Assembly (NCBI GenBank): GCA_017509255.1
Contig: JAFWQA010000003.1
Coordinates: forward strand, 1 to 47,018
From: Clostridia bacterium
Lineage (GTDB): Bacteria; Bacillota; Clostridia; Christensenellales; Aristaeellaceae
Direction: 5' to 3'
DNA: 47,018 nt
A model generated the notes under the pieces. The model saw nothing but the letters and a program-made list of their open reading frames with translations. It made no database searches and was not told the origin of the DNA. Position numbers and translations under genes: made by a program. The stretch's first letter is position 1, and each line of letters begins with the position of its first letter. Shown one piece after another: positions 20,734 through 45,202 of the stretch.

Positions 20734-20816
20734 GCGCCCTACCCGATCCATCCTGTTTCTCCCCCGGGCCGCCCCGCGGCAGCCCGGCCGACCCATAAAC
20801 CAAAGGAGGCGTAAAG

Positions 20817-22115: not shown

Positions 22116-22143
22116 TCCCCTTTTCCCTCCCGCATATCCCTTG

Positions 22144-22171
22144 CAGGCCGCCCTTCCGCGGCCTGTTTTTT
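22144..22171 (+). terminator. Terminator of the HD/lipoprotein operon
   Basis: Stem CAGGCCGC/GCGGCCTG (22144-22151 with 22158-22165), six-base loop, then six T. Confidence 0.93.
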
Positions 22172-22208
22172 CCGCCGTCCGGCCCGCCGCCCGTCCGTAT
22201 TGTTACAA

Positions 22209-22291
22209 TTGGCTTACAGGACACAGGGCCTTTTCCGTCGAATATAATTTCTCTGGTAACACCGTCAGAAGAATATAAAGGACCTTCCTAT
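22209..22291 (+). promoter_or_regulatory. Conserved upstream element, copy B (before the internalin-like gene)
   Basis: Homologous along its full length to 15982-16065. It has a perfect -10 TATAAT at 22243-22248, but the -35 position holds GACACA or GGACAC, a poor match. The copy ends 14 bases before the ATG and has its own RBS (AAGGAG). Confidence 0.7.
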
Positions 22292-22305
22292 TCAAGGAGA
22301 TAAAA

Positions 22306-23838
22306 ATGACGCATCCCTTCCGTACCGCACTGCTGACCATCCTGCTCCTCTTCCTGCTCTGCTTCGCCTCCGCCGCGTCGGCGGACGTCGCCCTGGACAA
22401 GGCGCATTTCCCGGACGATGCCTTCCGGCAGCTGCTCTCACAGAAAAAATACGACCGGAACGAAGACGGCACCCTGCAGGACGAAGAGATCTGGGACCTG
22501 GCGCTCCTGAACGCCGACGGCCTGGGCATCTCCTCCCTCCGGGGCGTCGAACACCTGACCGGCCTCACGCAGCTGGAATGCCAGAACAACAGCCTCACCT
22601 CCCTGGACGTGAGCGAGCTCTGGGGACTGGAATACCTGGACTGCAGCAGCAATGCCCTCACCGCGCTGAACATCTCCGGCTGCTATTATCTGGAATCCCT
22701 CTACTGCTCCGGCAACAAGCTGAAAACGCTGGACGTGAGCGGGCGCTCCGAGCTGGTCAGCCTGGAATGCCAGGGCAACCTGCTCACCTCGCTGGACCTG
22801 ACCGACTGCTTCTCCCTGGAGGCGCTGGACTGCTACGGCTGTAAGCTGACTGATCTGACCCTCACCGGCTGCGGCGCCCTGGGCTATCTGGATTGCCGCG
22901 GCAACCAGCTGACGGAGCTGGACCTGACGGACTGCAGCGACCTGTACCGCCTGAACTGCCAGAGCAACCTGCTCCAGGCGCTGGACGTGACCCCCTGCAC
23001 CGACCTGATGACCCTCTACTGCCACTCCAACCCGCTGGCCTCCCTGACCGCGCAGGGCCTGGCAAAGCTGAAATACCTGGACTGCCACGGCGGCAGGCTG
23101 ACGGCGCTGGACCTGACAGGAAACGCCGCCCTGGGCACGCTCTACTGCCACGCCAACCGGCTGGAATCATTGACCCTCTCCGGCTGCGCATCCCTGTACC
23201 GGCTCAACTGCCGCGGCAACCGGCTTGCAAACCTGAACCTCACGGACTGCGGAAGCCTGTCCGCCCTGCGCTGCCAGAGCAATCAGCTCACCGCGCTGGA
23301 CCTGTCCTCCTGTCCGGAGCTTTTTCAGCTGTACTGCTATTCCAACCCGCTGACGGAAGTCAGCATCACGAAAAACGCAGACCTGAAAAGGACCGCCCTG
23401 GACGGGGACATGGAATGGAAGGACGGCTGGAAGCTCTTCCTGATCGACGAACCGGACAACACCCGAAACAGCCGGGACAGGGAAGACGAATTCTTTGAGC
23501 AGGACCGCGGCCCCGACGACCTGGACGACTACGGCGACCAGACCGACTGCAAGCTCGGCCTGGACGAGGACGACGTGCTCGCGGGCCTGTACCCGTCCGC
23601 CTGCGTGATCCTTCCCTCCGCCCTGAAGACGGTCAGCGAGGAGGCCTTCCCCGGCACAGCCGTAACGAATATCGTGATCCCGGGCTCCGTCACCTCCATC
23701 TCCGGAACCGCCTTCCCGGCAGCAAAGCCCGCCCTCTGGTGCTTCGCCGGCTCCCCCGCCGCCGCCTGGGCAAAGGAAAACGGCTATAAGGTCTTCACGG
23801 TCAACGCGGCGTGGCTCACCGAAATGAAAAAGAAATAA
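22306..23838 (+). CDS. Secreted internalin-like leucine-rich repeat protein
   Basis: 510 residues. The signal peptide is likely cleaved after ASA near residue 25. Residues 30-60 (FPDDAFRQLLSQKKYDRNEDGTLQDEEI) form the EF-hand-like cap often preceding clostridial LRR solenoids. About 15 LRRs of 21 residues follow (pattern LxxLDCxxNxLTxLDLTxC), with a cysteine at nearly every turn. After residue 375 comes an acidic linker (RDREDEFFEQDRGPDDLDDYGD), then one LRR_5-like unit at the C-terminus. No anchor motif is visible, so it is secreted or held by other means. A conserved element shared with the HD/lipoprotein operon sits directly upstream, suggesting common control. Confidence 0.9.
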   Translation: MTHPFRTALLTILLLFLLCFASAASADVALDKAHFPDDAFRQLLSQKKYDRNEDGTLQDEEIWDLALLNADGLGISSLRGVEHLTGLTQLECQNNSLTSLDVSELWGLEYLDCSSNALTALNISGCYYLESLYCSGNKLKTLDVSGRSELVSLECQGNLLTSLDLTDCFSLEALDCYGCKLTDLTLTGCGALGYLDCRGNQLTELDLTDCSDLYRLNCQSNLLQALDVTPCTDLMTLYCHSNPLASLTAQGLAKLKYLDCHGGRLTALDLTGNAALGTLYCHANRLESLTLSGCASLYRLNCRGNRLANLNLTDCGSLSALRCQSNQLTALDLSSCPELFQLYCYSNPLTEVSITKNADLKRTALDGDMEWKDGWKLFLIDEPDNTRNSRDREDEFFEQDRGPDDLDDYGDQTDCKLGLDEDDVLAGLYPSACVILPSALKTVSEEAFPGTAVTNIVIPGSVTSISGTAFPAAKPALWCFAGSPAAAWAKENGYKVFTVNAAWLTEMKKK

Positions 23839-23891
23839 GGAGCCCCGGCCGGCAGGCATAAGCCTCCCCGGCACAGAGCTCCCCCTCCGAC

Positions 23892-23925
23892 GAACGGAAG
23901 CCGGGCAAACGCCCGGCTTCCGTTC
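23892..23925 (+). terminator. Terminator-type hairpin between convergent genes
   Basis: A 15-bp perfect stem (23892-23906 with 23911-23925) around the loop AAAC, with TTT shortly after on the plus strand. It ends the internalin-like gene and separates it from the convergent gene at 23944. Confidence 0.8.
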
Positions 23926-23943
23926 TTTCATCCCAAACCAAAC

Positions 23944-25284
23944 TCACGGCACCCGGCAGAATACCAGGGAATCACTGCCCTGTGCAAAGGTCTCGGCGGC
24001 GCTGCCCGCCTTGCCGTAGATCTCGATGACGTCCTCATCCTCCAGCACCGCGCAGCCCGACAGAAGATCCGGGGCGATGGAGGTCACGCTCTTCGGGATA
24101 TAGATCCTGCGCAGGGACTGGCAGTTGGCAAACGCCTTAGCCCCGAGAGTCTTCACCCCGTCCGCGATCCTGACGTTCTCCGCGTCGATCCCCGCAAAGG
24201 CCTCCGAAGCAATAGTCTTCGTGTCCGCGGGCGTCACGAATTCGGGGTTGTTCATCACCGGCACAGCGGATATGCTGACCGCCCGGACCGCGATCCGCGC
24301 ACTGTCCCCCGATCCGATGAGCCTGACCCGGAAGAGCGCGCCGCTTTCCGCCTGCGTGCTCAGGGAGAAATGGTACCCGGGCCCGCTGTCGTCATCCGAT
24401 TCGAGGATGTTCCCGTTCTCCGTGTTGATCCGCTCGATCACCGGGTCCGCCCCGGCCTGCGCGCTGAAGGAGTACAGCTGGTTATATTCCGAATTCGTAT
24501 CCAGGATAAAATGCTCACATTCCCCGGGATCGATGTTGACGTAGGCCGTGCTCACCGGCGCCCAGGACGTGTCCATGCCCACGGCGTCCGGCCCGTAGGT
24601 CACGTTGAACCTCCCCGTGCCGGCAGCGGTGGCGCACCCTGTTTCCAGATAATAGACACTCCCGCTCACCAGCCCCGCTTCCAGGAAAAACCGCCTGTCC
24701 GGATCGTCAGGGCTCTTATACGCCGACTCGGCGATCTTGTTCCATTCCCCGTCGTACAGCACGGCGGCCGCATCCTGCCGATCGTCCACGGAGCGGAACA
24801 GGTAATCGCAGGTGACCTCCGGCAGGACCTTCAGATACACCTTCTTCCCGGGCTCGCTGATATCCATATAAGTCGACGACTTCCCCGTGCAGTACCCGGT
24901 CTTGGTGAATTCGACCGTCTCTGTTTCCAGCCGGACGCTGAAGCTGACGGCGGAAGGGAACATGAGATACAGGTCATATGTGCGGCCCGCGCGGTACAGT
25001 CCCGTAAAGCTGACGGGGCAGCCGCCGCCCGTAAGGTCCCTGTACACCGTCCCGTCCTCCTCAACGTACCCGTACGTATAGCGCGTACCGCAGTTGACGG
25101 TGATCACGTACCGCGACGTCACGCCGACCGTAAAGGTGACCGTGGCATAGTCCCCGGCCGGCACGGAGGAAACCACCAGCCCGTGCAGCTCGAGCTGCAG
25201 CGCCCCCTCCCCGCCGGAAACAGCCGGCACCGCAAACACAGCGATCACCAGAAGCAACAAGCAAAACCGATACAGGTTTCTCAT
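23944..25284 (-). CDS. Secreted protein with beta-sandwich region and LRR_5 tail
   Basis: 446 residues from ATG 25284 (GGGAGG upstream; a longer start at 25329 would add 15 residues before the signal peptide and lacks an RBS). The signal peptide MRNLYRFCLLLLVIAVFAVPAVSG is likely cleaved near residue 23. Residues 25-330 contain strand-rich stretches with the flavour of bacterial pre-peptidase domains (YDLYLMFPSAVSFSVRLE; ECEHFILDTNSEYNQLYSFSAQAG). The last 90 residues are LRR_5-like (TKTIASEAFAGI, VKTLGAKAFANCQSLRRIYIPKSV). Function unknown; surface or secreted role likely. Confidence 0.82.
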   Translation of the reverse strand: MRNLYRFCLLLLVIAVFAVPAVSGGEGALQLELHGLVVSSVPAGDYATVTFTVGVTSRYVITVNCGTRYTYGYVEEDGTVYRDLTGGGCPVSFTGLYRAGRTYDLYLMFPSAVSFSVRLETETVEFTKTGYCTGKSSTYMDISEPGKKVYLKVLPEVTCDYLFRSVDDRQDAAAVLYDGEWNKIAESAYKSPDDPDRRFFLEAGLVSGSVYYLETGCATAAGTGRFNVTYGPDAVGMDTSWAPVSTAYVNIDPGECEHFILDTNSEYNQLYSFSAQAGADPVIERINTENGNILESDDDSGPGYHFSLSTQAESGALFRVRLIGSGDSARIAVRAVSISAVPVMNNPEFVTPADTKTIASEAFAGIDAENVRIADGVKTLGAKAFANCQSLRRIYIPKSVTSIAPDLLSGCAVLEDEDVIEIYGKAGSAAETFAQGSDSLVFCRVP

Positions 25285-25357
25285 ACCCGGCCTCCCGTTA
25301 TCCTTCCCGGGCGCAAAGCGCCGCAGCAAACACTATCCACTTTCATCCTCTGCCTTC

Positions 25358-25714: not shown

Positions 25715-28700
25715 TTATTTCAGTCCGGCAAGTGAGATGATCTCTTCTATTGGTTCTTCTCCAACTTTCATTTCTTTAAAACTTGCATTGTTGGCAATGA
25801 GAATATTAAATATTTTTTTCCCAATATTCGTTGTAATTTTTTCTCTGTCTTTCCAAAAATCTCTTATTCGGCTTCTGGTATATGATACTTCTCCTTTCTT
25901 TGCTTTTTTCAGCAGGCACAGCAGCTCATACAACATTTGTATTTTATCGATCTCCTTGGCTATTTTCCCATTTTCGTCTCCTGTTTGCGACCATTCGTTC
26001 CACAGGAGCAAATAATCTGATAAATCCGATATTTCCGGCTTTATTCCCATCATATAGAGTTTTTCAGAAAAAGCTGTTTCCTCATCCCGTAATTCATTTT
26101 CTTTTTCACAGTGAGGTATAATATCCCCCACATGTGTTTCTCCCAAATCATGGATCAAAAGCATATTTAATATCTTCTGTTTATCATATCCTTGCACATC
26201 ATCGCATACTGCAGGCAAATACAAAAGTCCTATAAGATAACACATATATGTATGTTCGAGAGTTGTTTCGATAGTTTCCCCCTCGTCTTGCATTTTCATA
26301 TACTCATCGGCAGATATGTGGGAAGGCAATGTATCATGGTAAAGCCAGCCCATTCGCTTCACACTCTTTATTTTGGACAATTCTTCAAAGATACTCACCG
26401 GATTAAAAGCATCTTCTGAACTGATTAAGGGAGCTTTCTCCAGCTTTTTCAGACATTGTTCAAAGTAGCTGACCTGGGTCCTCAGATATGATATAAATAA
26501 TTCCATCTCTTTTCTGGTTGTATAAATGTTTATAAACTTTTTGATCGCAGGGATAATAAATGCCAATGCTTCATATGCCATATCATCTTTGGGTTTATTG
26601 AATTTTTTATCGTAAAAGAAAGAAGGAACCCTGACTATTTCACCGTTTTTCGGGTATCTTGTTTCTGCCATTGGCGTCCCTAATCTGATTTGAAACAAAT
26701 CACATAATGTGAATAACTCTAACGCAAGAAGAGTATACTCTTTTCCGGTTTTTTCAAACTCTTCCAGCCTGCTGGCTATCAGATGATAAGTATTATAAAA
26801 ATCCAGGCTGTTATATATCACTTCCCTTTTACTCTTCATACTTCTATCACCATAAAACTGCAGATAGAATTCCCTGTTCACTTTTCGGCTTTCTTCATTG
26901 CGAATCAGCTCATTTAAGTACTTTGCCAGTTCTTTTATGCTTCCCTCCGGACTCATATAGATATTGCTGATAACAATGGATCTCCATGCTATTTCCTTCT
27001 CAGGATAGTTCTCAGATGAGTCCGGATCTTTGTATTCCTCCAGTAATTTCTTTTCACTGTCCAGCAGTCTTTTTACCTGTCTCCCATAAAGTTCTTTATC
27101 CAGTCTCCCTAATAAATAGACAATAGTTGCCTTTCCTTCATAACTCAGTTTATCAAAGTGCCTTTCAGCAAATCCAAGCACATGCTTATCCATGTTGTAT
27201 CTTTTTATGTAAGCTCTTATAAAAGAACATATTCTATGATCAAATAGTTCATTAACCAAATCATAATCTTCTGCTGACAGTCCCTCTTTCTTGATGTAGT
27301 TTGCATAATTCCGTGCAATCAGGTATCTGGCAACTTCTTTTTGTGTGCGGAAAACTTCAAAGGTTTTGTTGCTGATCAGTTTGTTGGACGAAACATTTTC
27401 AAATCGGGCTCTCTTGATTTCATCATAACTCCTGTCCGGTCTGTAATTGTACAGATAGCAGGCTTTAGCCGCATTATCCATTTGATCCGCCGGTATACTG
27501 CTATTTGTTTGTCTTTCAACGAGCTCAAAATATTCATCCTCTTTAGGGCTACTGCTTTTGTTAATTAATTCATTCCAGATTTTCAGAAGCAGATTGGTAT
27601 CGATCTCCAATATGTGCATTTTGTCGATTCGTTCTTTTACTCTCTGGATTACCTCGTCCGTGCCGACCCCGCGAAGTTTGCAAAATGCCTCAATAAAGGC
27701 TGTGTATTTATCCTTTGCACTGACTTTTTTTGTCAGCATTTTGTTCATATACATAATATATAAAGAATTGTGTTCCTCATCCTGTTTCGATCTTTCAATC
27801 CCATTATGTCCCGTGTCTATACAATATATGATTTTACTGTAATCCTTCCCTATCCCGCTTTTCATTTCCAAATCAATTGAGTTTTCTATATTTGCCTTCT
27901 TATACAAAACATACTGATCTATACCGTCAATAATACAGCATGCAGGCCTTTGAAGGTCTGACGCCTTTTTCAGTCCTTCCTGAAGAATAGATTTAAACTC
28001 CTTCATGAATTTTTTCCCAAAGGCAGCTGTGTTAAGGTTTTCTTCTCCTTTGCTCTTCTGGCTGTCAAGATACTCTCTGAGTTGTCCGACATCAATATAG
28101 ACCGGAATATATTCATTTGTCCCGTTCGCATACCTATACAGCATGTTCAGATATAAAACGGTCATGCATACACTTTTACCGACCCGTAAATCTCCACGGA
28201 CAGTCAGACATGTCTGGTCCTTTGTTTGTGCTTCAGAGATGATTCTCGTCAGAGTATTAATAAAACCGTCCTTCACATCTACCGGAACCATACTTTTATC
28301 TTTTTCTGTTTCTTGTTTTAAATCCGAAGATGCTTTGAAAAGAATATCCAGATTCTTCCATTTATCCTCTTCCCGGACTTCTTCAAATTTGATTATTTCT
28401 TTCTCCAGTTCCAGCTTATCAGTATTCTGTACCCCAAACAGATATTTCAATGCTTGTTCCTTAATAAATTTCTTGCTTATTGCCAGAATGGATGATACTT
28501 CATTCTCAGAGCCGCGTATCCCCCATTGATTATTTCTGTAGATCAGGCTTTTATGATGATGATGCTTTTCCGCATCATATTCATGGATTCCGTAAGAAAT
28601 TGCTTCTTCTGTCAAGGGAGCTCCAACAATATAATCAAAATTATGTTCATTATCCGTATGTTTATCTCCATAAAGCCTTAATCCGAAGTACCGGCTAATA

Positions 28701-29449
28701 GTTGCATCCGTTTTTTCTATTTCTTTTTTATCTTTTTCCAGGTACCAATACAAAGCATTCTCACAGTAATCTGTCCGCGGTGCATGAGCTACAAGAACAT
28801 TTAGCAGCCTGTTTTTTTCTTTTGTTTTTATCAGCTTCGCTTTGTTTTCCCTTATTTTCTCATCAACTTCCCTGCAGCCTATACAAAGCAGCTGTTTTTC
28901 TCCGTCTACCCATTTATTCACCCAGTTGCTGTTGATCACTAAAAAGTTCAGATCACCAATCTGTCTGAAATGTGTTTTTGCGTCTGCATAGCTTCCTTGA
29001 ATGCTTTCGCAAAACTCCAAATACTTTTTAAATCTGTTTTCATTGTAAAACTTATATCCCGCTTTCCCATCCGGCAATGTACAGGGTATGATCTCTGCCC
29101 CGGTATAATAAGTATTTACATCATGATTCCCACAGCAAATAATAATATGATTACTGCTGATTCCCAGTTCATTAGTCAGGTAATCAAAATATTCCTTTGC
29201 CTTTCTGTAAGCTTTCTCCGCTTCTTCATCCCATTTTTTTGCTTTTTCATCATCCGGCAGTTCCGGATCTATTGTACTGTTTATTGTTGTCCAATCTATC
29301 ACATCGCCGTTATAAACAAGTATAAGATCTTCAGGATTGAAGTGCATATCCTTCAGCTTTTCAACCAGTTTGGAAAATGCCTTTTGTTTCTTCGGTGCCG
29401 GCATTTCAGAAGTAATATGAAAATCGGAAAGCTGTAATATCGTCTGCAT
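25715..29449 (-). CDS. Calcineurin-like phosphoesterase, STAND-type NTPase and HD nucleotidase in one protein
   Basis: 1244 residues, three recognisable parts. (1) Residues 1-300, metallophosphoesterase: LSDFH (Asp9, His11), NGDVID 48-53, GNHD 107-110, AHAP 221-224 and GDKH 261-264. (2) Residues about 395-800, P-loop NTPase: Walker A GDLRVGKS 419-426 and Walker B CCIIDGIDQY 504-513, followed by long helical sequence as in STAND proteins. (3) Residues about 1060-1180, HD domain of the HDDC2/YfbR type: His1066 (LEHTYMC), His1100-Asp1101 (LLIHDLGETHVGDI) and Asp1168 (EIDKIQMLYEL). STAND proteins of the Avs type are sensors that switch on a fused effector. Here either flanking enzyme could be the effector, the HD domain most simply by draining deoxynucleotides. 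AT-rich, single-gene unit with promoter 29721-29749 and a leader of about 265 bases. Confidence 0.88.
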   Translation of the reverse strand: MQTILQLSDFHITSEMPAPKKQKAFSKLVEKLKDMHFNPEDLILVYNGDVIDWTTINSTIDPELPDDEKAKKWDEEAEKAYRKAKEYFDYLTNELGISSNHIIICCGNHDVNTYYTGAEIIPCTLPDGKAGYKFYNENRFKKYLEFCESIQGSYADAKTHFRQIGDLNFLVINSNWVNKWVDGEKQLLCIGCREVDEKIRENKAKLIKTKEKNRLLNVLVAHAPRTDYCENALYWYLEKDKKEIEKTDATISRYFGLRLYGDKHTDNEHNFDYIVGAPLTEEAISYGIHEYDAEKHHHHKSLIYRNNQWGIRGSENEVSSILAISKKFIKEQALKYLFGVQNTDKLELEKEIIKFEEVREEDKWKNLDILFKASSDLKQETEKDKSMVPVDVKDGFINTLTRIISEAQTKDQTCLTVRGDLRVGKSVCMTVLYLNMLYRYANGTNEYIPVYIDVGQLREYLDSQKSKGEENLNTAAFGKKFMKEFKSILQEGLKKASDLQRPACCIIDGIDQYVLYKKANIENSIDLEMKSGIGKDYSKIIYCIDTGHNGIERSKQDEEHNSLYIMYMNKMLTKKVSAKDKYTAFIEAFCKLRGVGTDEVIQRVKERIDKMHILEIDTNLLLKIWNELINKSSSPKEDEYFELVERQTNSSIPADQMDNAAKACYLYNYRPDRSYDEIKRARFENVSSNKLISNKTFEVFRTQKEVARYLIARNYANYIKKEGLSAEDYDLVNELFDHRICSFIRAYIKRYNMDKHVLGFAERHFDKLSYEGKATIVYLLGRLDKELYGRQVKRLLDSEKKLLEEYKDPDSSENYPEKEIAWRSIVISNIYMSPEGSIKELAKYLNELIRNEESRKVNREFYLQFYGDRSMKSKREVIYNSLDFYNTYHLIASRLEEFEKTGKEYTLLALELFTLCDLFQIRLGTPMAETRYPKNGEIVRVPSFFYDKKFNKPKDDMAYEALAFIIPAIKKFINIYTTRKEMELFISYLRTQVSYFEQCLKKLEKAPLISSEDAFNPVSIFEELSKIKSVKRMGWLYHDTLPSHISADEYMKMQDEGETIETTLEHTYMCYLIGLLYLPAVCDDVQGYDKQKILNMLLIHDLGETHVGDIIPHCEKENELRDEETAFSEKLYMMGIKPEISDLSDYLLLWNEWSQTGDENGKIAKEIDKIQMLYELLCLLKKAKKGEVSYTRSRIRDFWKDREKITTNIGKKIFNILIANNASFKEMKVGEEPIEEIISLAGLK

Positions 29450-29720
29450 GTTATAAACCCCTTTTCGCTGTTTTTTTCAAATCAAAATTCCATTATGAGG
29501 TTGATCCGGCGATCCCTGCTAAATTACTTTTTTCATCTTCCTCGGCTGCTGCCTTGGAACAAATGAATATAAATATCAGACATAAAATCGACCGTCTCTC
29601 AAAGCATAAAAAATCTCACCTTGTTATCGGTTCGTTTCTATGGCTTTATCCAAAAAGCCGGCAGGCCGTTCGCTGGGATCTGAATAATAATATGTCATTA
29701 CAATATATAACAATGATTTA

Positions 29721-29749
29721 TTTATATCATACTGATATACTTTGTACAA
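29721..29749 (-). promoter_or_regulatory. Promoter of the STAND gene, related to the SIR2 promoter
   Basis: On the minus strand: -35 TTGTAC (29744-29749), 17-bp spacer, -10 TATAAA (29721-29726). The block from about 29711 to 29780 aligns with 34187-34250 upstream of the SIR2 gene, with shared GTATGATATAAAT, AGAAATC and CCGG segments. Confidence 0.75.
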
Positions 29750-29800
29750 CAATGATTTCTGCACTTTTCCGGTTCTTTTATTTGCAATTTCATAGTAAAA

Positions 29801-29828
29801 GCTGCCTCATTTTTCTTAATGAGGCAGC
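29801..29828 (-). terminator. Terminator of pcp
   Basis: An 11-bp stem (GCTGCCTCATT/AATGAGGCAGC) followed by TTTT on the minus strand, 90 bases after the pcp stop. Confidence 0.85.
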
Positions 29829-29917
29829 CCTTTTCATGAGTGTAAATGCCGTCATGCTGATTCGGCATTTCATTTTAATCCGTTTAACTCTGTTGGTTCT
29901 TTCTGCCCATTTAAAGA

Positions 29918-30511
29918 TCAGCACTCTGCCATGCACACCCTCAAAGCCGTCTCCAGCGCCTCTACACACCGCACGCTGTCCAGCACACTCTCCGGCGGCA
30001 CATGGATGAAGCCCGCAGGGATCTCCAACCCTGTTTTCCGCAGGTGATCCATCAGCAGATAAAACACATCATTGCACACATAAGTCCCCGCGGTATACGA
30101 CACCTCCGCAGGATAACCTTTCTCCCGCAGCTCCTCCACGATCCTTTCCACCGGCAGGCCGGAAAAGATCCCGTCCGGTCCGGCAGGATCGATCCTCTCA
30201 GCCTCAGGCTGGTTCCCTTCATTGTCCGGGATCCTTGCCTGCCTCCAGTTCACCGCAATCTTCTCCGGCGTCACAGCCGTCCTGCCGCCCGCCACCCCGG
30301 TGCACAGCACCAGGGAAGGCTTCAGTTCCTCCACCAGGGAAACGACCTTTTCCCCGGCCATCCCGAACACCACAGGCAAAAGCTCCTTCCGCACTACAAA
30401 GCCGCAAAGCTCCTCCGGCAGCAGACGCACCGCCTCAAAGGAAGCATTGGTCTTCTCCCCTCCGAAGGGCTCAAAGGCCGTCACCAGAATTGTTGGTAAT
30501 GCATTATTCAT
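29918..30511 (-). CDS. pcp: Pyroglutamyl-peptidase I
   Basis: 197 residues, slightly below the usual 200-215 but complete. It removes N-terminal pyroglutamate from peptides in the cytoplasm. The family landmarks are present: VTAFEPFGG at residues 10-18, LPVVF, GRTAVTPEKIAVNW, the catalytic Cys in AGTYVCNDVFY (about residue 143) and the catalytic His in GFIHVPP (about 167). The catalytic Glu is likely in the VTPEKIAVN region. GC-rich like the host backbone, in contrast to the AT-rich genes on both sides. GGAGGAG precedes the ATG. This suggests that foreign DNA landed on both sides of a resident gene, or that the gene was carried in from a GC-rich source. Confidence 0.95.
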   Translation of the reverse strand: MNNALPTILVTAFEPFGGEKTNASFEAVRLLPEELCGFVVRKELLPVVFGMAGEKVVSLVEELKPSLVLCTGVAGGRTAVTPEKIAVNWRQARIPDNEGNQPEAERIDPAGPDGIFSGLPVERIVEELREKGYPAEVSYTAGTYVCNDVFYLLMDHLRKTGLEIPAGFIHVPPESVLDSVRCVEALETALRVCMAEC

Positions 30512-30651: not shown

Positions 30652-32808
30652 TTACTTGCCTAACCTTATCAGCTTTTCCTCTTTCAATTGTTCTTTCATT
30701 GCCAGATTAACAACGAATAAAACAAATTCGGTCTCTTTGGAATTTTTTTCAAGCGTTCCTTTATACATAAATAATTTTGTATTATCAGGAATGGGCACTT
30801 CATCCAGAACGATCTTATTGGATTGTGTAACTTTTCCGATATTATCATTTACAGTATCAATGATTTGTGAGTATTTCTCTGAAGCCGCAGCATTGGTCAC
30901 ATATTGGACCAGAGAAAGGAACGCCGCGCCATCCAAATTATAGCAATTCCATATTTTATACAAATGATCTATAAGATCACGCTTGTTTATACTATTCTCC
31001 TTTTGCATTTCGCCTTCAATAATCGCATAAGGTTTTTGGTCCCTGTAAGCAGTGATATCCGCTTCTCCAGCCCTTTTCATGGAGAGTGACACACCCTTAC
31101 GTTCCTCGCGATGGATATCCAGTAATCTGTTCTGACGCAGCAGATCTGCCAGACGGTCGTTAAAAAAGTCTTCATAGTTTTCATCATCTGAATATGCATA
31201 GTTCATCATGGTAAGGAAAGCTCTTTGCATGTCTTCTATCAGGCCCGATGGATGCGCTTTTTCCTCTGAATCGCGAATCAGTTTCCTAATGTTCTCCTTC
31301 ACCGGATAAGGAATCGTGTCGCTCTCCAGCTCAGCATATCTTCTGTACAGATTTTTTATTGTTTCAGAATACTGACCATATTTCCAGTGATAGAGAACTT
31401 CATTTTTATCATGCGGAACACTATCGTTTGTATATCCCAGCAGTGACAGACAATTGTTTGCATTGATTCTCGGTAAATCATCAATATGATGCGATAATGA
31501 ATAGAACAGATTAATACATTGACTGTAAATCGGATCAATGTTTTCATCAACACTAGTTGCTCTTTGTATTTCTCCCTTATAATGTTCAAAGGTTGATATC
31601 AGCCTGTTATCTTTCATCAAGTATTTGACAGCAAAGGCATCAAAAGGATTCACATAATTATCGTACCATTCTTTATCCGGCAGGATATCCTCCTTACTGA
31701 CTTCCCGGAAAATCGTTTTAAAATAATTGATCGTATCTTCCAGCAGATCAATATATCTTTGATTGTATTCTTCATTCCCAAATATTCTTTTCATTTGACT
31801 GACGATCACATCATGTTTTGCCATATCCACCGGTTTCAACAGGACATTGACAGCAATAAATGAAAAGTATTTTGAATGCCAGATATGATGGCGATCAATG
31901 CATTTGTAAAAAGCTGCTTCTGCTTCCCTGTCCTTGTCCAGGATAATATACAGGAACGGCATGTATTCCGATAGTTTCTCCGTATATTTCTTTGTTTCCT
32001 CATGCAGATATCTGTCCGCGCAATCCATAAAACTGTTCAGATTCACCAGCCATTCCTCGGAATAATCCATAAAAGGGTAGATTTTTCCTTGATGACTGAA
32101 ATAGGTCTCCTTTATTTCCTGTCCTGCCATTGTGTGGAGCTCTTCATATTTCATCCTCCCCACGCAATAATTTAAATCCATAACGGTATACTTAAATTCA
32201 ATTTCCTTCAGATATTTGCAATACAGCCTCTTTAATACTTTCTCTTTCCACGGATCATTTCTTTCATTCTGGTAATCCCTTAACAAAACGATCAATCCCG
32301 GAAGAACCAGGGTGGTCAATGTCTTCAGATAGTTGGAGGGGCGTTCATCATCCTGTAAATACAAAGCAGGAAGCATTAAGCCTGCGCACATTCTAAGGTT
32401 ATAGGATGCAAATTCCATTTTGTCTTTATCGTAGCTCTTCCATGTTTGTTCTTCAACATGAGCAACAGAGCCGGTGTATACATTTCCCCGACGTCTGAAA
32501 TCATCCATTCTGTAATTATGGAAAGCTTCCGCTGTAGAAAACAGAAAATCATGTCCCGGCACATCGGATAATTCTTCCTTCAGCCAGTCGGAAGTCCCTT
32601 CAGAACACAGGAAGTCCACAACGAAAAGAATAAGAGATAAAAGATCATAAACACCGTAATTGGCCAGAGTCCTTACAAACGAAATATACTTTTCTTCTTT
32701 TTTATCAAGACTTTTAAAAATGTCATCTATGTTCACCTCATATTGCTCCAGCATCATTCCCAGCCACAAGTGCTGTTTAAATTCCTCCAGCAACTGAGTA
32801 TTGACCAT
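30652..32808 (-). CDS. Large protein with possible PD-(D/E)XK tail, partner of the SIR2 gene
   Basis: 718 residues from ATG 32808 (AAAGGGAG upstream; an upstream in-frame ATG at 32901 has no RBS). Residues 1-540 are helical, with no motif I can name. Near the C-terminus, GEADITAYRDQKPYAIIEGEM (Asp584, Glu598, Glu600) followed by DHLYKIWNCYN has the order and spacing of a PD-(D/E)XK nuclease core, though the expected lysine is replaced or shifted. A C-terminal PD-(D/E)XK-like domain on a large helical protein is common among uncharacterised defence proteins. It starts 89 bases after the SIR2 stop on the same strand and shares its AT-rich composition, so the two probably work as a pair. Other possibilities are a sensor or nuclease independent of SIR2. 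Confidence 0.75.
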   Translation of the reverse strand: MVNTQLLEEFKQHLWLGMMLEQYEVNIDDIFKSLDKKEEKYISFVRTLANYGVYDLLSLILFVVDFLCSEGTSDWLKEELSDVPGHDFLFSTAEAFHNYRMDDFRRRGNVYTGSVAHVEEQTWKSYDKDKMEFASYNLRMCAGLMLPALYLQDDERPSNYLKTLTTLVLPGLIVLLRDYQNERNDPWKEKVLKRLYCKYLKEIEFKYTVMDLNYCVGRMKYEELHTMAGQEIKETYFSHQGKIYPFMDYSEEWLVNLNSFMDCADRYLHEETKKYTEKLSEYMPFLYIILDKDREAEAAFYKCIDRHHIWHSKYFSFIAVNVLLKPVDMAKHDVIVSQMKRIFGNEEYNQRYIDLLEDTINYFKTIFREVSKEDILPDKEWYDNYVNPFDAFAVKYLMKDNRLISTFEHYKGEIQRATSVDENIDPIYSQCINLFYSLSHHIDDLPRINANNCLSLLGYTNDSVPHDKNEVLYHWKYGQYSETIKNLYRRYAELESDTIPYPVKENIRKLIRDSEEKAHPSGLIEDMQRAFLTMMNYAYSDDENYEDFFNDRLADLLRQNRLLDIHREERKGVSLSMKRAGEADITAYRDQKPYAIIEGEMQKENSINKRDLIDHLYKIWNCYNLDGAAFLSLVQYVTNAAASEKYSQIIDTVNDNIGKVTQSNKIVLDEVPIPDNTKLFMYKGTLEKNSKETEFVLFVVNLAMKEQLKEEKLIRLGK

Positions 32809-32897
32809 CTTTCTCCCTTTCCGCAGAATTTTTCTGCATGTGGTTTTTCCGTGAAGAAAACATGTTTTCAGCCCGTTTCTTCTGTTCCGGACAGGGA

Positions 32898-33974
32898 TCA
32901 CAGAATACCGTTATTCTTTATCTCCAGGATGATTTTATCATAAGCATCCTCATATGAATCACAGTTTTTTCCGATCGTATAACTCTTTACCGTTATGAGC
33001 TCCTGAGCCATCATTTTATGCAGTTTCCGTTTCCCATCATTCGCCCGTTTCCGCCATTCTTCTTTCTGAGGATCGTTCTTCTCGATGTCGTCCAAAACAT
33101 CATAGAAAACGATCTGATTCTTCAGATAGTCTTTCATCCCGAAGCGGTTCGTGTAATACAGATATGCCCTCTGCGTGAGCAGCCACCATATATCCGATTC
33201 ACATTCTGTCAGTCCAAGCCCAATGATTGCAATATTGGAGGTAAAGAATTTTTCCCCCCATATCCCCTGAGGCTTTTCAGTCCCCGCAAGGATCTTCACG
33301 ATCTTCTTTCCCAAACTGGGATACTGTCCTTCATCGTTCAGCTCTTTACTGAGTTTTGTGACATTATACATATAGTGTTCAAAGCCCAGGCATATCGTAC
33401 TCGGCAATGCTGTTATCCCATGCAGATGATAGAACGGGACACCGCCCGAAACACCGGTGGACCTGCTGATGCTTTTCGGCGGTCCCATGATCTTCCCGTT
33501 ATAGCTGTAATTGTCATCAAAAGCCGTTTCCAGCAGAAATTCATAATTGGTCGTCATAACCGCATCCGGATTAAGTTCCGGAATCTTTCTGTGGATCGCG
33601 TCCGGCGGAAGCTCAATATGGGCTATCCTTGCAGCAATATCCGCCTTGATGATCGAATAAACCGTATCCAGGGCCCGGATCGTTTTTTTGCCGTCCAGAT
33701 AGCCGATTTTACGGACTTTGTTCCCCGTCCCCAGGCTGTCCAGTTGTTTTTGATAATCTTTGCAGATCTCATTGTAAAGCTCCTGCAAAACTGCAGCATC
33801 CTTTACTTTTGACATATATTCATTCACGATTCTTTCGAATTCCAAAGGCATGGAAATATCTTCTTCATAATGTACCTTCAGCCGGTCAGCTGTTTTTTTC
33901 AGCAGTTCTCCCCATGCAGAACTTGTTTTCAGGCAACGATTCAATCCATTCCCGATCAGCAGACAATTCTCCAT
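32898..33974 (-). CDS. SIR2-family protein, predicted NADase of a defence module
   Basis: 358 residues from ATG 33974 (GCAGGGGA about 8 bases upstream). The fold markers of SIR2_2-type proteins are LLIGNGLNRCL at 5-15 (glycine-rich nucleotide loop), VMTTNYEFLLETAF at 139-152, FYHLHG at 181-186 with the catalytic histidine, and NIAIIGLGLTECESDIWWLL further on. In phage defence (Thoeris-, DSR- and Avs-type systems) such domains hydrolyse NAD+ on infection; by family, this one is probably the killing effector. It is the first gene of a two-gene unit with the following 718-residue protein. The promoter is at 34199-34227, with a leader of about 217 bases. Confidence 0.88.
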   Translation of the reverse strand: MENCLLIGNGLNRCLKTSSAWGELLKKTADRLKVHYEEDISMPLEFERIVNEYMSKVKDAAVLQELYNEICKDYQKQLDSLGTGNKVRKIGYLDGKKTIRALDTVYSIIKADIAARIAHIELPPDAIHRKIPELNPDAVMTTNYEFLLETAFDDNYSYNGKIMGPPKSISRSTGVSGGVPFYHLHGITALPSTICLGFEHYMYNVTKLSKELNDEGQYPSLGKKIVKILAGTEKPQGIWGEKFFTSNIAIIGLGLTECESDIWWLLTQRAYLYYTNRFGMKDYLKNQIVFYDVLDDIEKNDPQKEEWRKRANDGKRKLHKMMAQELITVKSYTIGKNCDSYEDAYDKIILEIKNNGIL

Positions 33975-34198
33975 TTCTTTTCCCCTGCTCTTCCTTTGTT
34001 TTTGTATCACTCTGAACAAATGAGGATGATCATAAGGCGGATCCCGGATTTTATAAAAACGGTCAGGTCATCTGATATGCAAACATATCCATGAATCCTT
34101 CATGATCACTGCATACAGGCAAAGCTTTCAGACCGTTTCCCTGAGACTGTTCCGGGATGCTTCCAGATGCTGTTTTGTTACAAAGTATAACAACATCA

Positions 34199-34335: not shown

Positions 34336-34442
34336 AAATCTATCGGGTTGAAAGCCAAAAATCTGTCGGATTGAAAACTCCAAATCCGTCGGATTGAAAA
34401 CTCCAAATCCGTCGGATTGGAATTGCAAAATCTGTCGGGTTG
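34336..34442 (+). repeat. Five iterons, exact 23-bp period
   Basis: The 15-base unit AAATCYGTCGGRTTG starts at 34336, 34359, 34382, 34405 and 34428, always 23 bases apart. The eight-base spacers are AAAGCCAA, AAAACTCC twice, and GAATTGCA. Units differ only at a few positions. The array ends 31 bases before the ATG of the DUF4143 ATPase, and the last unit overlaps its likely promoter, so it looks like an operator for a protein that binds repeatedly along nearly one face of the helix. Confidence 0.93.
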
Positions 34443-34451
34443 TGTTATCCT
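34423..34451 (+). promoter_or_regulatory. Possible promoter of the DUF4143 ATPase gene
   Basis: TTGCAA (34423-34428), 17 bp, TATCCT (34446-34451); 4 of 6 matches in each box. The spacer is almost entirely the fifth iteron, so a protein bound there would block or recruit polymerase directly. Confidence 0.5.
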
Positions 34452-41091: not shown

Positions 41092-42153
41092 ATGCTACAC
41101 GCGATAGACTTGTTCTGTGGTGCCGGTGGTCTTTCCAGAGGATTTATGGATGCTGGTGTCGATATTATCCTTGGCGTTGATAATGACAAGGCTGCTTTAA
41201 AAACTTTTGAAAAAAACCACGGGAATGCCATAGGCATGAACGCTGATCTCAGTAAACAGGAAACATTTGACAAGATTCAGGAAATCGCAGAATCTTCCGG
41301 AAGAAGTATTGATCTTGTTATAGGCGGACCACCTTGCCAGGGATTCAGTCTGACTGGTCCGCGTAATTTTGATGACCCAAGAAATAAACTGTACCTCGCC
41401 GTTTTTGCGATGGTAAAACAATACAAGCCTAAAGGTTTTCTTATTGAAAACGTCCCAGGCATGGCGACATTATATGAAGGTCAAATAAAAGAAGAAATAC
41501 TAAAGAGATTTCGTTCTATGGGATATAATGTCGAATGCAAAATTCTAACAGCAGCAGATTACGGTGTGCCACAAATGAGAAAGCGCCTTGTCTTTATGGG
41601 AATTCGCGAGGATATAGGTTTCCCTGCATTTCCAAAGGCGAAAGTTGACGAAGAGCATTATGTCACATGTCGTGAGGCTATCGATGATTTGCCACCCAGA
41701 ACAGAGGAACTTGGGCAGGAGCAAGATGAGTACATAATGGAACCTCGATCCGATTATCAAAAGATGATGCGCAAGGACTGTACCATTCTATGGAATCATG
41801 TTGCTACTGACCATAAGCAATTTGTTAAAGATACTATTGCTCTTGTGCCTGAAGGCGGAAACTGGAAAGATCTTCCGAAGGGCGTTGGAGAAAGCAGGAC
41901 ATTTCATGAGGCTTGGACTCGATATCACGGTGATAAGCCCTCCAGAACTATCGATACCGGGCACAGAAACCATTTCCATTATCAATACAATCGAGTGCCT
42001 ACAATACGCGAAAATGCCAGGCTTCAAAGTTTCCCAGATGATTTTGTGTTTCTTGGAACAAGAACACAGCAGAACCGGCAAGTTGGAAATGCAGTCCCCC
42101 CTTTGTTAGGTAAGGCGCTGGCGGAAAAAATGATTTCGATCATAGAAGGGTGA
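41092..42153 (+). CDS. DNA (cytosine-5) methyltransferase, first of two
   Basis: 353 residues with all the hallmarks of C5 methylases: motif I DLFCGAGGLSRGF (6-18), motif IV GGPPCQGFSLTG with the catalytic Cys (about residue 81), motif VI FLIENVPGM, motif VIII YGVPQMRKR, motif IX RTIDTGHRNHFHY, PTIRENARLQSFPD, and motif X RQVGNAVPPLLG. It transfers a methyl group from SAM to C5 of cytosine in a specific site; the target-recognition region (about residues 200-270) gives no hint of the sequence. AT-richer than the backbone. First of seven same-strand genes; the next starts 7 bases on. Confidence 0.96.
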   Translation: MLHAIDLFCGAGGLSRGFMDAGVDIILGVDNDKAALKTFEKNHGNAIGMNADLSKQETFDKIQEIAESSGRSIDLVIGGPPCQGFSLTGPRNFDDPRNKLYLAVFAMVKQYKPKGFLIENVPGMATLYEGQIKEEILKRFRSMGYNVECKILTAADYGVPQMRKRLVFMGIREDIGFPAFPKAKVDEEHYVTCREAIDDLPPRTEELGQEQDEYIMEPRSDYQKMMRKDCTILWNHVATDHKQFVKDTIALVPEGGNWKDLPKGVGESRTFHEAWTRYHGDKPSRTIDTGHRNHFHYQYNRVPTIRENARLQSFPDDFVFLGTRTQQNRQVGNAVPPLLGKALAEKMISIIEG

Positions 42154-42160
42154 AACATAT

Positions 42161-43381
42161 ATGCTTAATTCGATAGAGCTGTTTGCAGGTTGTGGCGGGT
42201 TGCTTGATGGCTTCGAGCAATCCGGGCATTACAATTTGCTCGCGGCTGTCGAGTGGGAAGAAGCACCGTGCGAGAATCTGCGTCATCGTTTGAAAGACAA
42301 GTGGAACATGGAAGATGCAGATAATCGTGTGCTTCGTTTTGACATTCAACGTACAGAAGAACTAATTCAGGGTTGGAAAGATGACCCGGAATACGGATCT
42401 GGGCTTGGGCTTGATAATCTCATTCAAGGGAAGCGTGTTGATGTTATTGCAGGCGGGCCACCCTGTCAGGCCTATTCTATAGCCGGACGTGTCCGTGACG
42501 AAAATGGCATGAGAGACGATTATCGCAACTATTTGTTTGAGAGTTACCTGAAAGTTGTGAACCATTATCGACCCAAAGCTTTTCTGTTTGAGAATGTGCC
42601 GGGTATTCTGACCGCGAAGCCGGGCAACGGAGAACGATTAATAATTGATATTATTCATGAAGAGTTTGAGAAAGCAGGATATTGTGTTCTGTCAGATTTG
42701 TCAAAAGCGGTAGTTGATATGACGGAATATGGTGTTCCTCAAAACAGGAGCAGGATCATCATTGTTGGCCTTTCTCGTGATGAATATGGTGATAGATGTG
42801 AAGAAATGCTTGAATGCTATTATAAGAAGCATTTAGCATCTTATAAAGTGGAAAAGAAAGCAACTGTCCGGCAAGCAATTGGAGATCTGCCAGGGCTTTA
42901 TCCCCTGGGGAAGACAGAAAAGTACAACGGAAAAAGCATCTCACATAGTCTTCCCGATCCATGGGTAGATAACCATGTTGCCAGGTGGCAATCCGATAGA
43001 GATATTAAGATTTTCAGAATGTTGGAGGAAGATGTTCAGTCTGGCCAGAATAAGTATGTATCCATTGAAGCGCTGAAAAGGCTTTATACAGAAATGACCG
43101 GAAAGACATCAAACGTACATAAATATCATGTTATCAGATGGGATGAACCAAGCAACCTGATTCCGGCTCACTTGTATAAAGATGGTCTCAGGCATATCCA
43201 TCCTGACCCTAAACAAGCTCGTAGCATAACGGTGAGAGAAGCAGCTCGTTTACAAACTTTCCCTGATGATTACGTCTTTTACGGCAGTAATGTTGTAACA
43301 TTTAAAATGATTGGCAATGCTGTTCCCCCTTTGTTTGCAAAGAAAGCCGCATTAGCATTGAGCAAACTGCTGGAAGAATAA
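42161..43381 (+). CDS. DNA (cytosine-5) methyltransferase, second of two
   Basis: 406 residues. Motif I ELFAGCGGLLDGFEQSG, motif IV GGPPCQAYSIAGR with the catalytic Cys (about residue 101), motif VI FLFENVPGI, motif VIII YGVPQNRSRIIIVG, ITVREAARLQTFPD, and motif X FKMIGNAVPPLFAKK. It is only distantly similar to its upstream neighbour, so it is not a tandem duplicate. Two different C5 methylases with one nuclease suggest that each protects one strand of a non-palindromic or degenerate site. Confidence 0.96.
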   Translation: MLNSIELFAGCGGLLDGFEQSGHYNLLAAVEWEEAPCENLRHRLKDKWNMEDADNRVLRFDIQRTEELIQGWKDDPEYGSGLGLDNLIQGKRVDVIAGGPPCQAYSIAGRVRDENGMRDDYRNYLFESYLKVVNHYRPKAFLFENVPGILTAKPGNGERLIIDIIHEEFEKAGYCVLSDLSKAVVDMTEYGVPQNRSRIIIVGLSRDEYGDRCEEMLECYYKKHLASYKVEKKATVRQAIGDLPGLYPLGKTEKYNGKSISHSLPDPWVDNHVARWQSDRDIKIFRMLEEDVQSGQNKYVSIEALKRLYTEMTGKTSNVHKYHVIRWDEPSNLIPAHLYKDGLRHIHPDPKQARSITVREAARLQTFPDDYVFYGSNVVTFKMIGNAVPPLFAKKAALALSKLLEE

Positions 43382-43405
43382 AGCAAAGCGAAAGAGGTGA
43401 TCGAC

Positions 43406-44749
43406 GTGCTGTATTATGACAATTTATATGAGATTGTTTTTCACAGACACGAACACTTCGCATGCGATGAATTCATTGTTATTTCCGGTTATGTTGGGCC
43501 ACAACCGGTGCGCAGAATAAAGGAACTGCCGATAAAATCAACGGTAGTATATGGTATGTATGCAAGCGACGGGATTCATAAAAGCCTGCATGCCTCTTTG
43601 TTGAGAGAAGAAGCAGCGCTTGATAATCTAACGGTTTTGTATTCCACGATGCCTGTGCATACTAAGGCCTACATGTGGCTGCGAAACGGAAAAGTGGTTC
43701 ATTCATTGATTGGATCGGCAAATTTCTCAATGAATGGATTGACAACCCCAAACAAAGAAACACTAGCAGAGACCACTGCCGATACATTCAGACCTTTGGA
43801 GATTTACAGAGATCTTGTTTTTGGACGTAGTATTCCCTGCATCAATGCCACTGTAAGGCAAACAACGAGCCAACAAGAACGCGAAGCCTCCTGGGTTGGT
43901 TATGATCCAAACGTTTGCGAATTACCGTTGTATTTGGAGGAAAATAACGAGCGATACATCCCGCCTGCAAGTGGTATCAATTGGGGCATGGCTAGACTGG
44001 GCGGAAGTCATGTAAACATTAATGACGCGTATATTCCTATTCCGGCAGACAGAGCTGATCATTATCCATTGATGTTCCCTGCAAAGCAAACAGCACCGGT
44101 TAACATGGAGGCTGTATATCGTGAAGGTCATAGACATAATGATACAGTCGAAGTGATATGGGATGATGGAAAAGAAATGACGGTTTTGCTCGAAGGAAGC
44201 CGAGGAAGACTTGATGAATATGGAAATAAAGTATGGTACCCAAAGCAAATCGCATCCAGTCCGAGTAAAGCTGAACTTGGTAAGTATATTCGTTCAAGAT
44301 TAAACATTCCCGAGGGTAAAGCAATTACTTATGACGATTTAATCATGTACGGAAGAGACTCGATTTCTATCTCACTTCAAGGTGAAGGCATTTATTTCTT
44401 TGATTTCTCGCCTCGAAATGCGCTTGATTCAGGCTCCGGCAGAAATTATCCGCCAGTTGTTGTTACAGAACCAGTTAAGTTAATTGCTGAACAAAACAGC
44501 GAATTCTCTCAGGAACAAGTTGATGTTGACAATGAAATTGATGATGAGTCAACTCTGTCAAACAACCCCGCATCACATTCTGTGTTACAAGTACCCGCTT
44601 CTGGTGAACGGGTGGTTCATAAGATATATGGAACTGGTATTGTCAAGCAAGTAAATGATACATATATTGTCGTTTCTTTCGGTGGAACGGAAAAAGAATT
44701 CCAGATCCCGAATGCCTTTGAGTCCGGTTTTTTAAAGAGGCCAGAATAA
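43406..44749 (+). CDS. NgoFVII-like restriction endonuclease (PLD-type)
   Basis: 447 residues from GTG 43406, chosen because AGAGGTGAT sits at optimal distance; GTG 43397 is possible. The half-HKD motif VHTKAYMWL (His85, Lys87) and GSANFSMNG (103-111) mark a phospholipase-D-type nuclease as in RE_NgoFVII and BfiI-like enzymes, which act as dimers without metal. The C-terminal 45 residues (VVHKIYGTGIVKQVNDTYIVVSFGG) resemble the small Tudor-like fold at the ends of UvrD/CarD proteins. Flanked by two C5 methylases and Vsr, so a type II restriction enzyme is by far the best reading. Confidence 0.88.
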   Translation: MLYYDNLYEIVFHRHEHFACDEFIVISGYVGPQPVRRIKELPIKSTVVYGMYASDGIHKSLHASLLREEAALDNLTVLYSTMPVHTKAYMWLRNGKVVHSLIGSANFSMNGLTTPNKETLAETTADTFRPLEIYRDLVFGRSIPCINATVRQTTSQQEREASWVGYDPNVCELPLYLEENNERYIPPASGINWGMARLGGSHVNINDAYIPIPADRADHYPLMFPAKQTAPVNMEAVYREGHRHNDTVEVIWDDGKEMTVLLEGSRGRLDEYGNKVWYPKQIASSPSKAELGKYIRSRLNIPEGKAITYDDLIMYGRDSISISLQGEGIYFFDFSPRNALDSGSGRNYPPVVVTEPVKLIAEQNSEFSQEQVDVDNEIDDESTLSNNPASHSVLQVPASGERVVHKIYGTGIVKQVNDTYIVVSFGGTEKEFQIPNAFESGFLKRPE

Positions 44750-44773
44750 TTGAATTCAGAATAGGAACTAAGA

Positions 44774-45202
44774 ATGGATGTTCATAGCAAAGAGACAAGA
44801 AGCTATAACATGTCGCAGATCAAGGGTACAAACACAAAACCCGAAGAGATTGTAAGGAAATATTTGTTTTCAAAGGGTTTCAGGTACCGCAAAAATGTCA
44901 ATGACTTACCCGGGAAACCCGATATTGTCTTGTCGAAATATCGAACAGTTGTATTTGTTAATGGATGCTTCTGGCATCATCACGAGAATTGCAAATACTT
45001 TGTTTGGCCGCGGAGTAACGCGGAGTTTTGGAAAAAGAAAATTGATGGGAACGTAATGCGAGATTCCATAAACCATGAAAAACTTAAGGCTGCGGGATGG
45101 CGTGTTATAGATGTTTGGGAATGCGAATTAAAAAAGGACAAGCGCGTAACAACCTTGGAATTGTTAATAAAAGCCATATTAGTTCCACCTTCAGTAGGAT
45201 GA
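44774..45202 (+). CDS. vsr: Very short patch repair endonuclease
   Basis: 142 residues, normal for Vsr. SYNMSQIKGTNTKPE at 11-25, then FRYRKNVNDLPGKPDIVLSKYRTVVFVNGCFWHHHENCKYFVWP (about 37-80) carries the catalytic Asp and the zinc-binding Cys/His residues; WRVIDVWECEL closes the fold. Vsr nicks next to T:G mismatches created when 5-methylcytosine deaminates, so it belongs functionally with the two methylases upstream. It begins 24 bases after the nuclease gene. Confidence 0.95.
   Translation: MDVHSKETRSYNMSQIKGTNTKPEEIVRKYLFSKGFRYRKNVNDLPGKPDIVLSKYRTVVFVNGCFWHHHENCKYFVWPRSNAEFWKKKIDGNVMRDSINHEKLKAAGWRVIDVWECELKKDKRVTTLELLIKAILVPPSVG

What the first reader, a model, noticed from the sequence alone, without database searches (positions are those of the whole stretch)
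25715..29449. Single-protein candidate defence system: phosphoesterase + STAND NTPase + HDDC2-like HD nucleotidase
Three complete active-site sets are readable in one 1244-residue protein: calcineurin-type phosphoesterase, P-loop NTPase with long helical tail, and an HD domain whose HDLGETHVGDI and EIDK motifs match HDDC2/YfbR 5'-deoxynucleotidases. Known Avs/STAND defence proteins carry one effector; two hydrolases flanking the STAND core is an arrangement I cannot place. Nucleotide depletion is an established anti-phage strategy (dGTPases, dCTP deaminases), so activation of the HD domain on infection is a concrete hypothesis. AT-rich island context supports recent gain.
Basis: partly seen in the sequence, partly recalled or inferred. 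Interest (0 to 1): 0.85.

Follow-up and report, generated by a model that had tools for sequence, protein, structure and literature searches.

The report
NLR-like protein ending in nucleotidase domain
This is a real, rare bacterial protein of an immune-like family whose front end is swapped between different enzymes while its back end is always a nucleotide-cutting domain, which suggests that this constant domain senses or edits the cell's DNA building blocks.

Summary
In detail: one 1244-residue protein carries a calcineurin-type phosphoesterase (Pfam), a canonical P-loop and an HDDC2-like HD domain (Pfam HD_3; best solved relative human HDDC2). The reading of two effectors flanking a STAND core changes once relatives are seen. 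A scan of 84,980 genomes, with patterns taken from the linker before the HD domain, found 21 loci in at least six phyla. All 21 and the window end in an HD_3 domain above Pfam's cut-off, with all six two-metal ligands intact in 22 of 22. The N-terminus is exchanged: phosphoesterase (2), TIR-like (11), PNP-type phosphorylase (2), lipase-like (1), unassigned (4), almost none (2). A canonical Walker A survives in 7 of 22. So the phosphoesterase looks like one of several interchangeable effectors, and the HD is the constant module. Best model: an NLR-like conflict protein whose C-terminal HD domain senses, and probably hydrolyses, deoxynucleotides. That role is inferred; HD as effector remains a serious rival. 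The window also holds a SIR2-like gene pair and a restriction-modification cluster within 16 kb. Nine literature searches found no description of this architecture.

The parts
25715..29449 (-). the whole gene, 1244 aa
28757..29443 (-). N-terminal calcineurin-type phosphoesterase (residues 3-231), the exchangeable effector position
   Evidence: Pfam Metallophos 34.7 bits; motif residues kept in L014
27500..28237 (-). P-loop NTPase region, STAND-like (residues 405-650)
   Evidence: Walker A GDLRVGKS and Walker B CCIIDG; relatives match nSTAND3/NACHT below cut-off; family profile has only weak P-loop hits in solved structures
26387..27499 (-). helical linker (residues 651-1021) with the family signature NR[GED]F[HY]L[EQ][YF]YGD
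   Evidence: alignment of 22
25718..26386 (-). C-terminal HD_3 domain with RxGW (residues 1022-1244), the constant module
   Evidence: Pfam HD_3 67.8 bits; six metal ligands in 22 of 22; HDDC2 E 2.5e-25 with the family profile
30652..34019 (-). context: SIR2-like gene (32898-34019) overlapping a 749-aa gene of unknown family (30652-32901) by four bases as listed
   Evidence: SIR2_2 20.9 bits, below its cut-off of 24.5; PADLOC PDC-S25 E 7.6e-8
41092..45202 (+). context: type II restriction-modification cluster (two C5 methylases, NgoFVII-type endonuclease, Vsr)
   Evidence: Pfam

Best explanation
A single-protein, NLR-like conflict system. An exchangeable N-terminal effector (here a metal-dependent phosphoesterase, elsewhere TIR-like, PNP-type or lipase-like) is held by a STAND-like P-loop switch and a helical linker and released by the invariant C-terminal HD_3 domain. 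The HD pocket binds a deoxynucleotide, probably a dNMP or dNTP whose level changes during infection, and its intact two-metal centre hydrolyses the ligand and so times or resets the signal. Shown here: the architecture, the exchange of N-termini, the invariance of the HD metal centre. Inferred: the immune role, the switch, the HD as sensor, the ligand. I hold the architecture claim (NLR-like, swapped effector, constant HD) at about 0.85; the confidence given is for the full mechanism with the HD as sensor.
For: HD_3 above cut-off in 22 of 22, although the scan patterns lie well before the HD domain. Six metal ligands in 22 of 22, RxGW arginine and tryptophan in 21 of 22 each. HD is the best conserved part: mean pairwise identity 0.346, linker 0.271, NTPase 0.202. 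N-termini differ, also inside one fully supported clade of 11, and are of the kinds known as interchangeable conflict effectors: calcineurin, TIR, PNPase (PMC7159879, PMC8195603, passages). The C-terminus is where NLR-like proteins carry the sensor (general knowledge). Patchy presence over at least six phyla.
Against: No NTPase family above cut-off. Catalytic ligands are never lost, which a pure sensor would not need. L027 has only 43 residues before the NTPase and no other recognised enzyme, so there the HD may itself act. Several loci lie among ordinary genes, and the PADLOC comparison of neighbours is inconclusive.
Confidence: 0.45

Rival explanations
1. The HD domain is the main effector: on activation it dephosphorylates deoxynucleotides and starves phage replication. 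The N-terminal domain is a second effector or an adaptor, and sensing lies in the linker or elsewhere.
For: All six metal ligands kept in 22 of 22 while Walker A is canonical in 7 of 22; L027 lacks another recognised enzyme. Relatives are nucleotidases: a T. brucei YfbR homologue acts on dCMP, dUMP and dTMP (PMC5098729, passages), DatZ on dATP (PMC8065100, passages). Clover shows a defence dNTPase of the HD superfamily (PMC12265719, outline and abstract).
Against: A second, exchangeable enzyme in front would be redundant in most members; effectors in such systems are normally the variable part (PMC7159879, passages). HDDC2/YfbR-type enzymes act on monophosphates, a less direct way to starve replication (inference).
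Confidence: 0.35
2. A regulator of nucleotide or NAD metabolism without an immune role, with the HD enzyme as the working part.
For: A NUDIX gene directly follows the HD gene in L031 and L012; L014 lies beside a phosphorylase and a deaminase-like gene, by reading of the sequences; several loci lie among housekeeping genes.
Against: Rare and patchy: 4 of 297 genomes of the order, own included, 1 of 391 of the class and 1 of 398 of the phylum, own only. Swapped TIR-like, PNP, phosphoesterase and lipase-like ends. AT-rich stretch with SIR2-like and R-M genes.
Confidence: 0.1

Closest known systems
STAND/NLR-type conflict proteins (Avs/AVAST, bNACHT, nSTAND families)
   Same: N-terminal effector, P-loop middle, long C-terminal part; exchange of TIR, PNPase and calcineurin effectors (PMC8195603, PMC7159879, passages).
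   Different: A conserved metal-binding HD phosphohydrolase at the C-terminus of every member seen; Walker A canonical in only 7 of 22; PADLOC has no model for the window protein and only weak hits for 3 core matches in 22.
TRADD-N proteins with C-terminal HD domains
   Same: PMC8195603 names the HD domain among optional C-terminal effector domains of NCOA6-clade TRADD-N proteins (passage); the nearest printed precedent I saw.
   Different: There the HD is one option among many; here it is constant and the N-terminus varies. TRADD-N was not tested for here.
HDDC2/YfbR 5'-deoxynucleotidases and DatZ
   Same: HD_3 domain with the same two-metal ligands; HDDC2 E 2.5e-25, DatZ 2.6e-6, YfbR 0.0032 with the family profile.
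   Different: Those are stand-alone enzymes of about 175-215 residues; here fused behind an NTPase-like core and a linker.
Clover (CloA dGTPase with CloB)
   Same: A defence HD-superfamily enzyme controlled by nucleotides (PMC12265719, outline and abstract).
   Different: Two proteins with a nucleotidyltransferase partner; here one protein, and none of the four neighbours scanned matched a nucleotidyltransferase.
DS9_1 anti-phage phosphoesterase (NCBIfam NF053862) and validated metallophosphatases
   Same: Partial similarity of the N-terminal domain; a metallophosphatase is among newly validated defence domains in PMC13092281 (passage).
   Different: 24.7 bits against a cut-off of 420, over about 75 residues; not a member.

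Membership tests
HD_3 (HDDC2/YfbR) | Pfam HD_3 above cut-off | tested here: met
   67.8 bits against 22.5; 22 of 22 members above cut-off
HD_3 (HDDC2/YfbR) | two-metal ligands H, HD, D (site A) and E, D (site B) | tested here: met
   22 of 22 at H1066, H1100, D1101, D1168, E1104, D1109; roles from PMC8065100 passages
HD_3 (HDDC2/YfbR) | 5'-deoxynucleotidase activity | not testable with these tools
   needs an assay
Calcineurin-like phosphoesterase | Pfam Metallophos above cut-off | tested here: met
   window 34.7 bits against 21.5; not reported for L014, which keeps the motif residues
STAND NTPase | Walker A and Walker B | tested here: met
   window canonical; 7 of 22 members canonical for Walker A
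STAND NTPase | curated STAND/NACHT family match above cut-off | tested here: not met
   none in the window; relatives nSTAND3 23.1 and 21.6 against 27.2, NACHT 22.5 against 26.7
STAND NTPase | winged helix and predicted STAND fold | not testable with these tools
   structure prediction switched off
Avs/AVAST | match to a PADLOC model | tested here: not met
   0 families at E 1 for the window protein
Avs/AVAST | C-terminal recognition of phage proteins | not testable with these tools
   needs experiment
Clover | nucleotidyltransferase partner gene | tested here: not met
   no such Pfam hit in the four neighbours scanned
DS9_1 anti-phage phosphoesterase | NCBIfam NF053862 cut-off | tested here: not met
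   24.7 bits against 420
TIR (N-termini of relatives, not of the window protein) | Pfam TIR above cut-off or profile match | tested here: inconclusive
   Pfam in 2 of 11 (L018 = L009; L016); 6 more by profile comparison, probability 95.6, E 1.1e-8; L022 by 49% identity to L018; L033 and L021 by eye only; no solved-structure hit

The most novel reading that the evidence does not exclude
An enzyme used as an innate immune receptor: the HD phosphohydrolase at the sensor end of a bacterial NLR-like protein reads changes of the deoxynucleotide pool (for example dNMPs from host DNA breakdown, or phage-altered dNTPs), hydrolyses its ligand to time the alarm, and releases whichever effector is fused in front: a family-wide nucleotide gauge with plug-in killers.
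Probability: 0.3. Interest if true: 0.88.

Novelty: new variant of a known kind. Interest (0 to 1): 0.66.

Why it matters
If the HD domain is the receptor, bacteria have an immune sensor that watches a metabolite pool most DNA phages disturb, built from the same domain as the human nucleotidase-family protein HDDC2. The family offers natural N-terminal swaps over at least six phyla, so sensor and effector roles can be tested by mutating one fixed site. If instead the HD is the effector, it is a nucleotide-depleting defence of an undescribed layout with a second enzyme built in.

Tried and rejected
Plasmid and phage records gave no match to the window protein. L030 against plasmids: 54 records, 15 listed, all 15 covering only its N-terminal part (query residues 8-360); L016: 10 of 10 covering only the HD part. 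Viral contigs: none. Class, phylum and Bacteroidota-class samples added no member. Solved-structure profiles of ten TIR-like ends and of the two phosphoesterase ends found nothing; the L023 N-terminus found one unrelated weak hit. Considered and dropped: the HD as an addition peculiar to this protein (22 of 22 carry it); membership in DS9_1 (far below cut-off).

Defence-neighbour test by PADLOC: inconclusive. I used 10 of the 21 loci, each with one 20-kb control stretch from the same contig, after dropping ORFs under 180 aa, over 1600 aa or with X. At E 1e-10, 43 families matched among 88 neighbour ORFs (25 shown) and 14 among 119 control ORFs. But 21 of the 25 shown are models of Wadjet (Jet) or type II methylase proteins with one member each, so few genes are involved; mad3 matched 2 neighbours and 5 controls.

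The tree has long branches meeting; its deep order is not relied on. The effector labels in it, TIR for L021 and L033 included, were set by me.

Full report
Observation. The gene at 25715-29449 (minus strand) is a single ORF of 1244 residues. Pfam gives Metallophos (residues 3-231) and HD_3 (1059-1184), both above cut-off. A single-sequence search of solved structures gives eight hits up to E 1, all in the HD region, led by HDDC2-type proteins. The P-loop GDLRVGKS and Walker B CCIIDG are present, but no curated NTPase model reaches its cut-off in the window protein. The stretch is AT-rich: GC 0.37-0.39 over 26001-30000, 0.53-0.68 over 1-25000.

Finding the family. A search of 297 genomes of the order with the whole protein found the own gene and three further genomes, whose proteins align in the NTPase-linker region and the HD but not in the phosphoesterase. 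They start with TIR-like ends; Pfam TIR_2 passes in one of the three, 28.3 against 28 bits. I then made a probe from window residues 640-1058, before the Pfam HD match, and scanned one genome for each of 84,980 species: 71 stretches matched, 21 encode relatives. The two patterns used lie roughly 100-200 residues before the HD domain, so HD presence was not built into the search; the linker signature partly was. Three of the 21 (L017, L018, L028) are the same records as L010, L009 and L011, found earlier. Record titles and the tree's taxonomy give Bacillota, Bacteroidota, Verrucomicrobiota, Campylobacterota, Pseudomonadota and Actinomycetota; two are unplaced. Many are metagenome bins. The scan needs exact patterns, so 21 is a lower bound. 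Profile searches of samples added none: 1 of 391 (class) and 1 of 398 (phylum), own genome only; 1 of 198 in the class of Flagellimonas, the centre itself.

Anatomy. All 21 and the window have a variable N-terminus, a P-loop region, a linker with NR[GED]F[HY]L[EQ][YF]YGD, and an HD_3 domain above Pfam's cut-off. N-termini: phosphoesterase in the window and L014 (45% identical, same motif residues; Pfam did not report it for L014). TIR-like in L015, L016, L017, L018, L020, L021, L022, L025, L028, L031 and L033: Pfam for L016 and L018; profile comparison for L015, L017, L020, L025, L028 and L031 (E 1.1e-8; one of the four rows of the other profile is a neighbour of L015 that I judged TIR by eye); similarity to L018 for L022; by eye for L021 and L033. 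PNP-type phosphorylase in L030 and L034, PGAP1-like in L029. Unassigned in L019, L023, L024 and L026. Only 43 residues in L027; 65, partly masked, in L032. A clade of 11 with full support holds 9 TIR-like and 2 unassigned ends; all labels together need 8 changes on the tree, 6 being the least possible.

The HD domain. It is the best conserved part (mean pairwise identity 0.346; linker 0.271; NTPase 0.202). All six metal ligands are present in 22 of 22; R and W of RxGW in 21 of 22 each. The family profile hits HDDC2 (E 2.5e-25), yeast YGL101W (1e-24), archaeal relatives, DatZ (2.6e-6) and YfbR (0.0032). In DatZ these ligands bind two metals, R19 stabilises the intermediate and W20 excludes ribose, and its authors propose the mechanism for all HD phosphohydrolases (PMC8065100, passages). 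That RxGW corresponds to R19/W20 is my inference. A T. brucei YfbR homologue is a 5'-nucleotidase most active on dCMP, dUMP and dTMP (PMC5098729, passages). Walker A, by contrast, is canonical in 7 of 22, with SYKN in 8 and QK[SR] in 3; the lysine is kept in 20 and the Walker B aspartate in 21. Selection holds the HD centre more firmly than the NTPase centre. In 12 genomes with a member that I searched, 9 hold no other match to the HD profile at E 1e-5; 3 hold one stand-alone HD gene in addition.

Context. In the window the same AT-rich stretch holds a SIR2-like gene overlapping a 749-aa gene by four bases as listed, and 41092-45202 encodes two C5 methylases, an NgoFVII-type endonuclease and Vsr. 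In two same-genus genomes (G284, G1281) the sigma-factor gene of window 36917 is kept (84-85% DNA identity), but by blastn about 15 and 10 kb on the island side show no match to window 25-36.8 kb; the next 15 kb of G284 has one 253-base match, in the peptidase gene. This supports variable presence, from two genomes only. Around relatives: Wadjet-type genes (PADLOC; placed at L019 by reading), a methylase and mobilisation-type genes near L029, TIR-, caspase- and HipA-like genes near L021, DUF4062- and MoxR-like genes near L016, TIR-like and macrodomain-like genes near L015, all by eye. L014, L020, L023, L024, L027, L028 and L031 look ordinary by eye. A NUDIX gene follows the HD gene directly in L031 and L012.

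Mechanism. Calcineurin, TIR, PNPase and HTH domains are described as the interchangeable effectors of conflict systems (PMC7159879, PMC8195603, passages). The phosphoesterase is thus most simply the effector, not half of an unusual pair. The constant HD sits where NLR-like proteins carry their sensor. I therefore favour sensing of a deoxynucleotide by the HD pocket, with hydrolysis as a timer. Nucleotide-controlled defence is known: Clover (PMC12265719, outline and abstract) and Gabija (PMC8136825, search listing). The rival, HD as effector, is close: catalytic ligands are never lost, and L027 has no other recognised enzyme.

Novelty. Nine literature searches showed no description of a STAND-type protein with a constant C-terminal HD domain; I read passages, not whole papers. 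The nearest is PMC8195603, which lists the HD domain among optional C-terminal effectors of TRADD-N proteins. PADLOC has no model for the window protein. No claim beyond these searches is made.

Noticed in passing
window 41092-45202 (+): Type II restriction-modification cluster just after a tRNA-Ala gene (40661-40734): two C5 cytosine methylases, an NgoFVII-type endonuclease, Vsr.
   Followed up: partly
window 30652-34019 (-): SIR2-like gene and a 749-aa gene of unknown family, overlapping by four bases. The 749-aa protein had no relative in 248 genomes of the order (own only), viral contigs or plasmids.
   Followed up: partly
window 34417-35760 (+): AAA_14-DUF4143 ATPase, PADLOC candidate PDC-S01 (E 1.2e-61); a 77% identical stretch in one same-genus genome, G1272.
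   Followed up: no
window 29918-30511 (-): Pyroglutamyl peptidase gene (Pfam Peptidase_C15) lying between the HD gene and the SIR2-like pair; related DNA about 30 kb from the sigma-factor gene in G284.
   Followed up: no
window 16723-25329: Neighbouring large proteins with repeated BspA-like leucine-rich segments; Pfam LRR_5 was run and found only for 23944-25329.
   Followed up: no
L031:5968-6477 and L012:4030-4536: A NUDIX gene directly downstream of the HD-family gene in two genomes.
   Followed up: partly
window 46878-47018: The last 141 bases are 100% identical to a stretch of same-genus genome G284, far above the identity of flanking matches.
   Followed up: no
plasmid hits H16-H25: Stand-alone HD family hydrolases related to this HD domain lie on haloarchaeal plasmids (10 of 10 records listed).
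   Followed up: no
L015:11861-12961 and L032:978-2516: Separate TIR-like proteins next to family members, by eye; at L032, whose own N-terminus is short and masked, one could supply an effector in trans.
   Followed up: no
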